Shown here piece by piece: positions 30,857-35,782 of a stretch of DNA of 64,000 bases. A program made the translations under genes and the position numbers. This stretch comes from Aureliella helgolandensis (lineage in GTDB: Bacteria; Planctomycetota; Planctomycetia; Pirellulales; Pirellulaceae): positions 3,472,001 to 3,536,000 of the forward strand of contig NZ_CP036298.1 of NCBI RefSeq assembly GCF_007752135.1. Direction: 5' to 3'. Below the pieces are notes generated by a model. That model ran no database searches, was not told the origin of the DNA, and was given only the letters and a program-made list of their open reading frames with translations. Within the stretch, counting starts at the first letter, position 1, and the number at the start of each line of letters is the position of its first letter.

Positions 30857-31237
30857 TCACTCGTCGAAAAGTTCGGTTTGATTTCGGCCGGCCAGGGCAA
30901 TGTCTAGCGCGGTCGTTAGTGTTTTGATTTGTCGGCGCCGCTCCACTGCGGTAAGGTCCGCGACTTTCCGACGGTCCAACGCTCGGATTTTTTCGACGGT
31001 TTCAACAATGGCTTTGAGCGTCTTGGTTTCGTGGCTGGTGGCCTTGCCTTCGATGCGGCTTCCAAGCTCTCGGATTAGCGGAATTGCAAATTTTCGCGCC
31101 CACTCGGGCGTCCGGTCCATGTGGGCCGTCGCCTCGCACGACTCCGCTAGTTTGGTCAGCTCTTTGTCTGCTAGCCAGGCGGCGGACTCTCTTACAATCA
31201 CTTCCGCCTGGAGCGTCCAGAATGTTTTGGTGCTCAC
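30857..31237 (-). CDS. Helical phage protein of unknown function
   Basis: The GTG at 31237 (VSTKTFWTLQAEV) is preferred because the longer ATG form would extend through the hairpin at 31263-31288. The protein is about 126 residues, charged and helical (WLADKELTKLAESCEAT, then ETKTLKAIVETVEKIRAL, DIALAGRNQTELFDE). There is no known domain. It directly precedes the D12 methylase gene (4-bp gap), so it may be co-expressed with it. The start choice is uncertain. Confidence 0.5.
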   Translation of the reverse strand: MSTKTFWTLQAEVIVRESAAWLADKELTKLAESCEATAHMDRTPEWARKFAIPLIRELGSRIEGKATSHETKTLKAIVETVEKIRALDRRKVADLTAVERRRQIKTLTTALDIALAGRNQTELFDE

Positions 31238-31262
31238 TTTGTTTGCTCGCTGTATTTCACTA

Positions 31263-31319
31263 TCCCCGGCGCCACGATTGGCGCCGGGGTTCCTTCCCGG
31301 TGCCACAATTGGCGCCCGG
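31263..31319 (-). repeat. Tandem GC-rich hairpins
   Basis: CCCCGGCGCC / GGCGCCGGGG (31263-31272 and 31279-31288) is a perfect 10-bp stem with loop ACGATT. An imperfect sibling with core CCCGG / CCGGG lies at 31295-31319. They separate the tRNA-like gene from the helical-protein gene. They are related in sequence to the hairpins at 31812-31836 and 31885-31909, so four copies of one hairpin family occur within 0.65 kb. Confidence 0.8.
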
Positions 31320-31367
31320 GTGCTTCCGCTGTTCGCCGGTCCCTCGCTCGGCGTCCAGCGTCCACAA

Positions 31368-31494
31368 TAGGCCGGGCGGGAGTCGAACCCGCGCCACTGG
31401 TTGGGAGTCTAGGGGAGTACGTTTCTTCGAATTCTGCCTTTCGGCTAGGATCGCGCCTCCCCGCCCAGTGCTCTAACCTCTAAGCTACCGGCCC
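31368..31494 (-). tRNA. tRNA-like gene with ~57-nt insertion in the anticodon arm
   Basis: On the minus strand a cloverleaf can be drawn. The acceptor is GGGCCGG/CCGGCCT, the D-arm runs through TAGCTTAGAGGTTAGAGC, and the T-arm is GCGGG-TTCGACT-CCCGC with a canonical T-loop. Between the halves ACTGG and CCAGT of the anticodon stem lie 64 nt rather than 7. If CTCCCAA is the loop, the anticodon is CCC (Gly) and the extra 57 nt form their own stem (GGGGAG/CTCCCC) plus a GAAA-capped hairpin. There is no encoded CCA. Variable-loop and position-26 spacing are atypical, so the anticodon and function are uncertain. Confidence 0.6.
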
Positions 31495-31501
31495 CCAATT
31501 G

Positions 31502-31792
31502 CTAGGCCGGCACGGGCTTGTCTTCTGGTCCCTGCAATCCCTCGGCTACCGGTCCGTGTTCGAAGTTCGGCACCTCCATTACCGGTGCCTCTCCGATTAC
31601 CTTTAGCCGGGCTATGTCGATCCAATAGCAGTTGTTTAGCTTTCCGTCTTCATCGACTTTCGGCCGAATCAATACCTGGATACAGCCGTACAAGTCGAAG
31701 CAAACAGAGGTCGCCACTCCCTGGAGTTCGGTTACTTTGTCCTCGCATTTGAAGCCGAGAATTTTTAGGTGTTTTGCAATCATCCAATCCAT
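31502..31792 (-). CDS. Small conserved phage protein
   Basis: The 96-residue protein (GFKCEDKVTELQGVATSVCF, then DLYGCIQVLIRP, and YWIDIARLKVIGEAPVM) fits a small beta protein that recurs in phage genomes as an uncharacterised family; I have no function for it. The ATG follows the terminator-like hairpin and T-run at 31800-31836, so its expression would depend on read-through or on a promoter I cannot see. It lies 7 bp upstream of the tRNA-like gene on the same strand. Confidence 0.6.
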   Translation of the reverse strand: MDWMIAKHLKILGFKCEDKVTELQGVATSVCFDLYGCIQVLIRPKVDEDGKLNNCYWIDIARLKVIGEAPVMEVPNFEHGPVAEGLQGPEDKPVPA

Positions 31793-31799
31793 CCATTCG

Positions 31800-31836
31800 A
31801 AAAAAAAACAACCCGGCGCCCACGTTGGGCGCCGGG
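31800..31836 (-). terminator. Intrinsic terminator-like hairpin ahead of a gene
   Basis: On the minus strand a perfect 10-bp stem (CCCGGCGCCC/GGGCGCCGGG, plus 31812-31821 and 31827-31836) is followed by TTG and nine Ts ending at 31800, 8 nt before the next gene's ATG. It has the full form of a rho-independent terminator but lies inside an otherwise continuous operon, suggesting attenuation or antitermination. Confidence 0.85.
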
Positions 31837-31840
31837 CTCA

Positions 31841-31909
31841 CTGGGGGGCTCGTGCGAATCCCCCCAGGACCGCTTCGGAAACAACCCGGCGCCCGAAGTG
31901 GACGCCGGG
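31841..31909 (-). repeat. Two further hairpins upstream of the terminator
   Basis: An 8-bp stem CTGGGGGG/CCCCCCAG (31841-31848 and 31860-31867, 11-nt loop) is followed by a near-perfect copy of the terminator stem at 31885-31909 (one mismatch, loop GAAGT, followed on the minus strand by TTGTTT). These add to a dense structured zone with no reading frame. Confidence 0.8.
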
Positions 31910-31920
31910 TCTCGCATAGC

Positions 31921-32018
31921 GGGGCCAGTCCTACCGGGGCTTGCGCTTAGTCGGCGGTCTCCCCCGGCTCTACCGCTCAGCAAACCTAGGACGCGTGAAC
32001 ACATCACGCATAGGCCCC
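31921..32018 (-). ncRNA. Candidate structured RNA with a three-way junction
   Basis: Nested perfect stems define a compact fold. The outer stem is 31921-31926 with 32013-32018 (GGGGCC/GGCCCC). One arm is closed by 31929-31933 with 31987-31991, and the second arm is the hairpin 31993-31998/32004-32009 (GCGTGA/TCACGC). Inside the first arm, 31934-31939/31962-31967 and 31954-31958/31972-31976 interlock, which would form a pseudoknot. It starts 13 nt after the phage csrA stop. No reading frame is present. Strand is inferred from the operon. It is not a tRNA. Confidence 0.45.
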
Positions 32019-32030
32019 TAACAGGTGTTT

Positions 32031-32246
32031 CTAGGTCGCCACCGTCTCCCCGCGTTTCTTCGTGATGTCACCGCCGGCTCGTTTGATCGCGTCGAACACT
32101 TCGCGACGATGGACGGCCGTGTTCTTCGGGGCTCTGATCCCTAGGCGGACTTTGTCGCCGCGAATGTCAACAACGACAATTTCTATTTGCTCGTCGCCGA
32201 TTACGATTATTTGGTCGACGTGTCGGGATAAAACTAGCATCTTCAA
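32031..32246 (-). CDS. csrA: Phage-encoded CsrA/RsmA-like translational regulator
   Basis: The 71-residue protein has the complete CsrA fold signature: MLVLSRHVDQIIVIGDEQIE, then [34 protein letters not shown]. Conserved residues for GGA-hairpin binding (Leu4/Arg6 region and the VHRREV segment) are present. CsrA blocks or stabilises mRNAs by binding GGA loops. The host has its own csrA at 35308-35517, so this is a second, phage copy, diverged in the middle. It lies directly upstream of a structured RNA region, which might include targets or an antagonist (inference). Confidence 0.9.
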   Translation of the reverse strand: MKMLVLSRHVDQIIVIGDEQIEIVVVDIRGDKVRLGIRAPKNTAVHRREVFDAIKRAGGDITKKRGETVAT

Positions 32247-34901: not shown

Positions 34902-34908
34902 TGTGAAG

Positions 34909-34981
34909 TGACCCCTATGGGACTCGAACCCATGTTGCCGCCGTGAAAGGGCGGTGTCCTAGACCGCTAGACGAAGGGGCC
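34909..34981 (-). tRNA. tRNA-Glu (TTC)
   Basis: On the minus strand the gene reads GGCCCCT at the 5' acceptor end and AGGGGTC plus discriminator A at the 3' end. The anticodon loop is CTTTCAC with anticodon TTC, and the T-arm is ATGGG-TTCGAGT-CCCAT. No CCA is encoded. The sequence is close to bacterial tRNA-Glu. The 3' end faces the prophage, making it a plausible integration target. Confidence 0.95.
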
Positions 34982-35307: not shown

Positions 35308-35517
35308 CTAATCATTAGTGTTGGTTGTCGCACCGTTTGGAGAATCGTCTTGCTGACTACGCAAAATCGCATCGTAGACCTCACGTCGATGCACGGGCAC
35401 TTCGCGAGGTGCTTCCACCCCCAGACGTACCTTGTCTCCGCGAATTTCCACAACGACAATGGTGATGTCGTTATTAATAACGATGCTCTCGTTTTTCTTT
35501 CGAGAAAGTACTAACAT
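35308..35517 (-). CDS. csrA: Carbon storage regulator CsrA (host copy)
   Basis: The ATG at 35517, preceded by AAGGAAGG, gives a 69-residue protein starting [38 protein letters not shown] follows, and the end is disordered ([13 protein letters not shown]). It dimerises and binds GGA in mRNA hairpins to control translation. A longer frame back to 35658 is rejected because the conserved MLVLSRK is the usual start. It is on the same strand as, and 327 bp upstream of, tRNA-Glu. Confidence 0.95.
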
Positions 35518-35782
35518 CGGACCCTTCCTTTGGTTAATTGGCCCTGGGCCGAATCCTATCTGGGATGCTCGGCGTGCACATTGCAGGTAACCTGCGGTTC
35601 TACAGCCAGAATACAATTCATGACTTACTACATTCACTCTACGCACAATGTAGGCCAAGTCAAGAAATGCAAGCCCATTGCCGTGCCTTTTTGTGCATTT
35701 TTATTCCCGCCGATCCAAAAGTGTGCCTAATAGACACCCTACCCTCTATAATTGGTTCAGTCCAACTTGCAGTCTTTGACCA

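What the first reader, a model, noticed from the sequence alone, without database searches (positions are those of the whole stretch)
31368..31494. tRNA-like gene with a ~57-nt insertion in the anticodon arm
Canonical acceptor, D and T arms flank an anticodon arm that holds 64 nt between stem halves. The extra sequence is structured (GGGGAG/CTCCCC stem plus GAAA tetraloop). Known bacterial tRNA introns are group I/II and far longer; an insertion this short is atypical. It may be a mini-intron, a decoy or a tRNA-derived regulatory RNA. It sits in a phage early region near csrA and GC hairpins.
Basis: partly seen in the sequence, partly recalled or inferred. Interest (0 to 1): 0.75.

Follow-up and report, generated by a model that had tools for sequence, protein, structure and literature searches.

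The report
Prophage tRNA-like RNA with extra arm
Related prophages in one bacterium each carry a tRNA-shaped RNA whose anticodon arm holds a folded insertion of about 57 bases; matching changes between copies show that evolution has kept both the tRNA shape and the insertion, but nobody yet knows whether it is spliced out or works as it stands.

Summary
On the minus strand at 31368-31494 lies a tRNA cloverleaf (Rfam tRNA 51.3 bits) with 64 nt between its anticodon-stem halves. Two more copies lie in related prophages of the same genome (77% and about half identical). Over the three, 95 of 96 base-pair cells pair and 13 of 32 pairs change on both sides, in all four cloverleaf stems and in three of four insert helices. 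A fourth related prophage has a tRNA-like RNA with another body and another enlarged arm at the matching place.

A tRNA-Gly(UCC) in the host's tRNA array carries a 75-nt insertion at nearly the same place, and 18 of 19 relatives' homologues lack it.

Against splicing: no shared bulge-helix-bulge, no EndA, no group I/II match, acceptor unlike glycine tRNA, lower GGG use in the prophage. My best reading stays a non-decoding phage tRNA mimic whose enlarged arm is the working part (0.43, lowered); a compact new intron is the main rival (0.30, raised). No transcript data; searches elsewhere were limited.

The parts
31368..31494 (-). whole tRNA-like RNA (127 nt), A at the discriminator position (31368), no CCA encoded
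   Evidence: Rfam tRNA 51.3 bits; family model R2 136.4 bits; two homologues in the genome
31488..31494 (-). acceptor stem 5' strand (pairs with 31369-31375)
   Evidence: 7 pairs, 3 with changes on both sides in 3 copies
31470..31485 (-). D arm
   Evidence: 4 pairs, 3 with changes on both sides; loop GG kept; 15-48 pair G-C in copy 1, A-U in copies 2 and 3 (read from the alignment)
31465..31468 (-). 5' half of the stem at the anticodon-stem position (CTGG; pairs with CCAG 31397-31400)
   Evidence: 4 pairs, one with a double change G-C to A-U
31401..31464 (-). 64 nt between the anticodon-stem halves, the extra arm
   Evidence: kept in three copies: 46 of 64, 34 of 64 and 37 of 63 columns identical for the three pairs of copies
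31457..31462 (-). insert helix A, 5' strand GGGGAG (pairs with CTCCCC 31412-31417)
   Evidence: first four pairs GGGG/CCCC in copies 1 and 2, GGTC/GACC in copy 3: two double changes
31436..31445 (-). inner hairpin GCC-GAAA-GGC (GCAA loop in copy 2, not a GNRA loop in copy 3)
   Evidence: 3 pairs, no double change; alignment
31401..31411 (-). 11-nt unpaired strand TAGACTCCCAA (consensus UNNACYYCCAA); its last 7 nt CTCCCAA is the anticodon loop if the insert is an intron
31376..31392 (-). T arm with TTCGACT loop
   Evidence: 5 pairs, 2 with double changes, one mismatch in copy 2
31502..31792 (-). upstream gene, 96 aa, unknown function; its stop codon lies 7 nt before the RNA, so a 5' end there would need processing
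   Evidence: phrog_37639 E 6.5e-31
30857..31252 (-). downstream gene (start uncertain), unknown; a 47%-identical homologue lies downstream of copy 3
32031..32246 (-). prophage csrA
   Evidence: CsrA E 1.9e-20; prophages of copies 2 and 3 have one too, the fourth prophage a csrA-like frame
31810..31838 (-). GC-rich hairpin followed by a run of nine T, likely terminator

Best explanation
A phage-encoded tRNA mimic. It is transcribed with the early genes, cut out at its ends by the host's tRNA-processing enzymes because it folds like a tRNA, and kept as a stable RNA of about 120-130 nt. It does not decode. The enlarged anticodon arm (four short helices plus an 11-nt pyrimidine-rich unpaired strand) is the working part and holds a protein or RNA partner; a host tRNA- or anticodon-binding factor, or a factor controlled alongside the phage CsrA, is the likeliest kind of partner. 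Shown: three prophage copies with selection on the cloverleaf and on the inserted helices, a fourth related prophage with a different enlarged-arm tRNA-like RNA in the matching place, and an early gene cluster with csrA. Inferred: transcription, end processing, absence of splicing, trans action. The partner is a guess.
For: Compensatory changes in acceptor, D, T and anticodon-position stems and in three of four insert helices (one search agrees). The core contacts of the L shape (U8-A14, the D-loop GG, the TTCGA T loop, 15-48 changing from G-C to A-U on both sides) are kept, read from the alignment. Arm and body have diverged together (copies 1-2: body 46 of 55, arm 46 of 64; 1-3: 27 of 55 and 34 of 64; 2-3: 27 of 55 and 37 of 63), which suits one functional unit. 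Copies 1-3 lie in related prophages of one genome, each with a csrA. A fourth related prophage (HD protein 79%, replication-type protein 69%, small gene 51% identical to copy 3's; csrA-like frame) carries at the corresponding place a 146-nt tRNA-like RNA with a Leu-type body and an enlarged arm, so the enlarged arm outlasts a change of body. The RNA begins 7 nt (copy 1) and 8 nt (copy 3) after a stop codon and about 15 nt after a terminator's T run (copy 2). Next to CTRG/CYAG all three copies have G on one side and A on the other, a mismatch where a decoding tRNA has its fifth stem pair.
Against: No expression data. Three sequences from one genome are a small sample. Copy 3 is not recognised by the Rfam tRNA model, so its tRNA nature rests on the alignment. 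The shared structure lies 7.7, 13.2 and 12.9 kcal/mol above the minimum-energy fold in copies 1, 2 and 3. Copies 1 and 2 carry a perfect 7-nt anticodon loop CTCCCAA inside the arm, which an unspliced mimic does not need, and in the same frame copies 1-3 all read glycine. The tRNA-Gly(UCC) of the host's tRNA array has a 75-nt insertion 5' of its anticodon loop where 18 of 19 homologous loci in relatives have none: insertions near this place do happen to real tRNA-Gly genes. Copy 4 scores only 24.7 bits with R2 (E 0.2 genome-wide) and no Rfam match; its arm shows no match to arm model R3. No partner was found: the 11-nt complement in copy 1 lies in a coding region, and copy 2's best complement is 9 nt, elsewhere.
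Confidence: 0.43

Rival explanations
1. A tRNA-Gly gene with a compact new type of intron. The 56-57 nt are removed by an unknown nuclease or by self-cleavage and the halves joined by host RtcB, giving a tRNA that reads GGG (copies 1, 2) or GGA/GGG (copy 3).
For: ARAGORN calls Gly(ccc) with introns of 57 and 56 nt at the same place in copies 1 and 2. CTCCCAA is a good loop with U33. The same frame in copy 3 gives UCC, also glycine (my reading; ARAGORN called a doubtful Sec(tca)). Copy 3's 17-nt T arm is identical to that of the array tRNA-Gly(UCC) (E 0.26). That gene itself has a 75-nt insertion, absent from 18 of 19 homologous loci; the 19th (G027) has a different, 29-nt longer hairpin insertion there. 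In copies 1-3 and the array gene 5 nt of the loop strand can pair with the insert, as anticodon and intron do in classical pre-tRNAs (recalled). RtcB present. No intact tRNA-Gly(CCC) among 80 tRNAs examined.
Against: No EndA homologue (one genome). No strict bulge-helix-bulge in copies 1 and 2; copy 3's one match is at chance level (29 of 200 shuffles). No ARAGORN hit with the intron at the standard place (copies 1 and 2). C33 in copy 3. A73 and, in copies 1 and 2, an acceptor stem identical to the host's tRNA-Met, while the host's tRNA-Gly(UCC) has U73. The prophage uses GGG less than neighbouring host genes (8.3 against 12.8 per thousand codons, crude ORFs). No insert-free homologue of copies 1-3 found. 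The loop-insert pairing is reached by 133-349 of 2000 shuffles per RNA, in windows chosen after the fact. The array gene may simply be broken: an intact tRNA-Gly(UCC) exists elsewhere.
Confidence: 0.3
2. A cis-acting punctuation signal: the tRNA shape draws RNase P and RNase E/Z, so that the early polycistronic message is cut here and the genes on either side get different stability. The released RNA has no further job.
For: Co-directional with both neighbours in copy 1; 7-8 nt from upstream stop codons in copies 1 and 3; GC hairpins and terminators around it.
Against: A plain tRNA body would do; it does not explain a co-varying extra arm kept in all three copies.
Confidence: 0.13
3. Counter-defence: a decoy or a cleavage-proof tRNA that occupies or evades host anticodon nucleases.
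For: Phage tRNAs have been proposed to be insensitive to anticodon nucleases (PMC10264068, abstract read); an arm in place of the anticodon loop would be an extreme form.
Against: I did not look for a nuclease or defence partner in the host; purely by analogy. It is a special case of the best explanation.
Confidence: 0.1

Closest known systems
Introns in Lak megaphage tRNAs (PMC6784885; abstract, passages and section 12 read)
   Same: phage tRNA genes with an insertion whose nature is unexplained ('enigmatic introns')
   Different: there tRNAs with assigned isotypes, at least one with insert-free counterparts, in megaphages of Prevotella; here prophage RNAs for which I found no insert-free counterpart, with helices kept by covariation. 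Lak intron lengths and structures not seen (supplement not available)
Archaeal and eukaryotic pre-tRNA introns (PMC4090602, passages read)
   Same: short insertion in the anticodon arm that leaves the rest of the cloverleaf intact; non-canonical positions such as 30/31 are known
   Different: no shared bulge-helix-bulge motif, no EndA
Bacterial and phage group I introns in tRNA genes (PMC3984707, search listing only)
   Same: insertion in tRNA genes of bacteria and phages
   Different: 57 nt cannot hold a group I core (recalled); no Rfam group I match
Phage tRNAs of tRNA-dependent lysogeny (PMC10865867, abstract read)
   Same: temperate phages integrating at tRNA genes and carrying a tRNA
   Different: there the phage tRNA replaces the disrupted host isotype; here the tRNA genes nearest the prophage ends are Glu, Leu(UAG) and Leu(CAG), not Gly, and at copy 3's prophage a 65-bp repeat keeps the tRNA end

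Membership tests
Decoding tRNA (RF00005) | cloverleaf with T loop, D loop GG, core tertiary contacts | tested here: met
   Rfam score met for copies 1 and 2, not for copy 3 or copy 4
Decoding tRNA (RF00005) | uninterrupted 5-bp anticodon stem with 7-nt loop and U33 | tested here: not met
   64 and 63 nt between 4-bp halves in copies 1 and 2, 60 nt in copy 3
Decoding tRNA (RF00005) | aminoacylation and use on the ribosome | not testable with these tools
   needs experiment
Archaeal/eukaryotic-type tRNA intron | bulge-helix-bulge at the splice sites | tested here: not met
   no strict motif in copies 1 and 2; one in copy 3, chance level; relaxed forms only single matches in copies 2 and 3
Archaeal/eukaryotic-type tRNA intron | splicing endonuclease (PF01974) in the genome | tested here: not met
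   0 matches at E<=1; the search rings in 5 of 14 controls including the four archaea
Archaeal/eukaryotic-type tRNA intron | RtcB-type ligase in the genome | tested here: met
   E 7.2e-102
Group I or II intron | Rfam intron model match | tested here: not met
Lak-type phage tRNA intron | the same tRNA exists without the insertion | tested here: inconclusive
   for copies 1-3 none found: 97 other relatives by DNA, and the part held of related phage L091; for the array tRNA-Gly yes, 18 of 19 loci
tRNA-dependent lysogeny tRNA | isotype matches the host tRNA at the attachment site | tested here: inconclusive
   adjacent tRNAs Glu, Leu, Leu versus predicted Gly; attachment repeat found only for copy 3's prophage
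CsrA-titrating RNA (CsrB kind) | many GGA motifs in hairpin loops | not tested
   only one or two GGA seen by eye in the arm, partly in paired strands

The most novel reading that the evidence does not exclude
A new class of compact bacterial/phage tRNA intron: about 55-75 nt, neither group I/II nor bulge-helix-bulge, placed 5' of the anticodon loop of tRNA-Gly-type genes in prophages and in a host tRNA array, removed by self-cleavage or an unknown nuclease with RtcB joining the halves.
Probability: 0.26. Interest if true: 0.88.

Novelty: new variant of a known kind. Interest (0 to 1): 0.62.

Why it matters
Phage tRNAs are common and mostly unexplained. Here is a family whose most distinctive part cannot serve decoding as it stands, yet is kept by selection in three prophages and mirrored in a fourth; and a real tRNA-Gly gene of the same genome has an insertion near the same place. 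It is either a new kind of short bacterial tRNA intron or a tRNA-shaped phage RNA with a non-decoding job. One northern blot in a cultured lysogen would separate the two.

Tried and rejected
Group I/II intron: no Rfam match. BHB intron. GGG codon supply: the prophage uses GGG less. Antisense to phage genes through the 11-nt strand: one 11-nt exact complement in copy 1, inside a coding region; best matches in copies 2 and 3 are 9 nt. Pairing of the loop strand with the insert: possible in copies 1-3 and the array gene, but in different columns and reached by 133-349 of 2000 shuffles; kept only as an idea.

Searches for more members. Viral contigs: one search gave only the same genome's own prophages (exact). 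One search was badly built (its gap was too long for its own copies) and means nothing. One search gave the 3 own copies and 2 others (L178, L179) that lie in long phage reading frames and do not match R2: taken as chance. Methylase: 2 loci in viral contigs, both own, none in named genomes. Exonuclease: 4 loci in viral contigs, 3 own and 1 related phage, L091, of which 12.8 of 38.7 kb is held and has no R2 match; 80 of 547 relatives kept in named genomes, none with the arm by R3. Integrase: 3 of 147 genomes including the own; the stretches held of the two others have no R2/R3 match. G001's 162-nt match is a run of N in an assembly. Model R1 had its inner hairpin misplaced by one column; R2 and R3 are corrected. 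The family, order and phylum searches score only some candidates per genome, and the list was cut, so absence is provisional. Attachment repeats of the prophages of copies 1 and 2 were not found. The weak 128-nt match L177 5094-5221 (19.4 bits) looks decayed and was not pursued. Copy 4 was not in the counts.

Full report
What is there. On the minus strand at 31368-31494 lies a complete tRNA cloverleaf with 64 nt between the halves of its anticodon stem. Rfam's tRNA model finds it at 51.3 bits, E 4.3e-8 for the whole window (alignment). ARAGORN finds it only when introns are allowed, as tRNA-Gly(ccc) with a 57-nt intron between ACTGG and CTCCC. Folding energy alone is not convincing for this copy (z -0.90).

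Copies. A DNA search of the own genome and 97 relatives found a second full-length copy in the own genome, 77% identical, at 6590638-6590762; the seven other matches were pieces of 22-29 nt, and five of the six that were fetched overlap ordinary tRNA genes (three Met, one Cys, one Thr). A covariance model of the two found a third copy at 2260311-2260433 (61.7 bits, E 3.9e-11). A model of all three (R2) scores them 136.9, 136.4 and 123.7 bits; the next best in the genome, an ordinary tRNA, reaches 43.8. The third copy is about half identical in sequence and is not found by the Rfam tRNA model.

Structure. On the three-way alignment, 95 of 96 base-pair cells are standard pairs and 13 of 32 pairs change on both sides; shuffles average 4.7 such pairs (0 of 500 reach 13) and slid structures give at most 2. 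I named the pairs partly from these sequences, and the alignment was fitted to a related model, so the percentage paired leans in favour; the count of double changes is the stronger measure. RNAalifold, which predicts its own structure on that alignment, gives 34 pairs with 12 doubly changed. Double changes lie in the acceptor (3), D (3), anticodon-position (1) and T (2) stems and in insert helices A (2), 5 (1) and 6 (1). The inner hairpin has none, and its GNRA loop is not kept in copy 3. By eye, U8-A14, the D-loop GG, the TTCGA T loop and the 15-48 pair (G-C, A-U, A-U) are kept, so the L-shaped fold itself looks selected. Against this, the shared structure lies 7.7, 13.2 and 12.9 kcal/mol above the minimum-energy fold of copies 1, 2 and 3.

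Setting. The window's copy lies in a prophage with terminase, portal, major head and tape-measure genes. Copies 2 and 3 lie in two further prophages of the same genome, held in IMG/VR as contigs of 2936182689, with exonucleases 85% and 48% identical to the window's. CsrA genes lie near all three: about 540 nt upstream of copy 1, about 170 nt upstream of copy 2, about 3 kb upstream of copy 3. The RNA follows the stop codon of the gene before it by 7 nt (copy 1) or 8 nt (copy 3), and a terminator's T run by about 15 nt (copy 2).

A fourth case. Among R2's weak matches in the genome were three of insert length: 25.9 bits (147 nt), 24.7 bits (146 nt) and 19.4 bits (128 nt). The 146-nt one (1510930-1511075) has a 7-pair acceptor stem, a T arm and a Leu-type D arm with a long arm between; ARAGORN with introns calls Leu(gag) with a 55-nt intron, Rfam finds nothing. 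It lies in a fourth prophage related to copy 3's: HD protein 79%, replication-type protein 69%, small gene 51%, integrase 29% identical, with a csrA-like frame. The RNA stands about 770 nt after the HD gene, the gene that precedes copy 3. I treat it as a matching but divergent case (copy 4); its arm does not match arm model R3.

A real tRNA gene with an insertion. The 147-nt match lies inside the host's tRNA array, between Gln and Asn. It is a tRNA-Gly(UCC): its flanks match the closest relatives' array tRNA-Gly at 93-100% identity, but 80 nt stand where they have 5. Of 19 homologous loci looked at in relatives, 18 have no insertion, including one of the same genus (G013); one, G027, has a different hairpin insertion, 29 nt longer than its neighbours. 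Its T arm is identical over 17 nt to copy 3's. An intact tRNA-Gly(UCC) exists elsewhere in the genome, so the array copy may be dispensable.

Distribution. With the arm-only model R3, 1 of 240 genomes of the family and 1 of 392 of the phylum have it, in both cases only the window's genome. Blast of copy 1 against 50,697 phage and 72,556 plasmid records gave only T-arm pieces; copy 3 against phages gave nothing.

Is it an intron? For: a good 7-nt loop CTCCCAA in copies 1 and 2; glycine anticodons in one reading frame of copies 1-3 (CCC, CCC, UCC) and in the array gene; the array gene's insert-free relatives; RtcB; no intact Gly(CCC) among 43 tRNAs outside and 37 inside the array (it covers the over-cut-off hits). 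Against: no EndA, no shared bulge-helix-bulge, C33 in copy 3, A73 where the host's tRNA-Gly(UCC) has U73, and in copies 1 and 2 an acceptor stem identical to the host's tRNA-Met (over the whole body the closest tRNAs compared were Met and Asp for copy 1, Trp for copy 2, none close for copy 3), lower GGG use in the prophage, no insert-free form of copies 1-3. In the register with a nucleotide 26, the fifth stem pair is a G-A mismatch in all three.

Mechanism. I favour a non-decoding tRNA mimic with a working arm (0.43, down from 0.5 because of the array gene), with the intron next (0.30, up from 0.22). Selection on the cloverleaf asks for something that reads tRNA shape: end processing at least. 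Selection on the arm asks for a second partner, or for a splicing signal. What the partner is, I cannot say; csrA nearby and the proposed contest between phage tRNAs and anticodon nucleases (PMC10264068, abstract) are leads only.

Literature. In searches of the held open-access library, none of the listed titles and abstract starts reports this RNA; I read no full text. The nearest is the Lak megaphage paper (PMC6784885). A review of non-canonical tRNAs (PMC7609411, passages) shows nothing like it in the passages seen. Subscription papers are mostly not held. No tool named the host; I take it for a planctomycete by general look, which is an inference.

Noticed in passing
window 31913-32021 (minus strand); L008 1342-1449: A second conserved non-coding element between csrA and the terminator in the prophages of copies 1 and 2 (nhmmer): paired GGGGCC/GGCCCC, GCGTGA/TCACGC, TCCTA/TAGGA, GCGGT/ACCGC and a possible pseudoknot CCGGGG/CCCCGG that becomes CCAGGG/CCCTGG in copy 2. 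No Rfam match at gathering score; no nhmmer hit in the stretches held of copy 3's prophage.
   Followed up: partly
L177 7443-7589 (genome 5553443-5553589, minus strand); L210 1503-1603: tRNA-Gly(UCC) of the host's tRNA array with a 75-nt insertion 5' of the anticodon loop, absent from 18 of 19 homologous loci in relatives; the 19th (G027) has a different hairpin insertion there.
   Followed up: partly
L222 8930-9075 (genome 1510930-1511075): 146-nt Leu-type tRNA-like RNA with an enlarged anticodon arm in a fourth related prophage.
   Followed up: partly
L177 (genome 5546001-5556500): An array of 37 tRNA genes called by ARAGORN in about 7.5 kb, 35 of them within about 3.6 kb, besides 43 other tRNA genes examined.
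   Followed up: partly
L003 682-1035 (genome G063): In another tRNA array ARAGORN calls Lys, Ile and Pro tRNAs of 93-95 nt, unusually long for these isotypes.
   Followed up: no
window 31262-31323, 31810-31838, 31880-31912; L008 1450-1486, 1672-1699: Repeated GC-rich palindromes (CCCGGCGCC...GGCGCCGGG, some with TTGTTTT tails) between genes of both prophages.
   Followed up: no
window 35308-35658 (minus strand): A second csrA-like reading frame just outside the prophage, next to tRNA-Glu 34908-34981: a prophage with its own csrA sits beside what looks like the host csrA (read from the translation).
   Followed up: no
L080 15672-15757 and L175 about 1831: 65-bp exact repeat of part of tRNA-Leu(cag) at both ends of copy 3's prophage, the likely attachment site.
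   Followed up: partly
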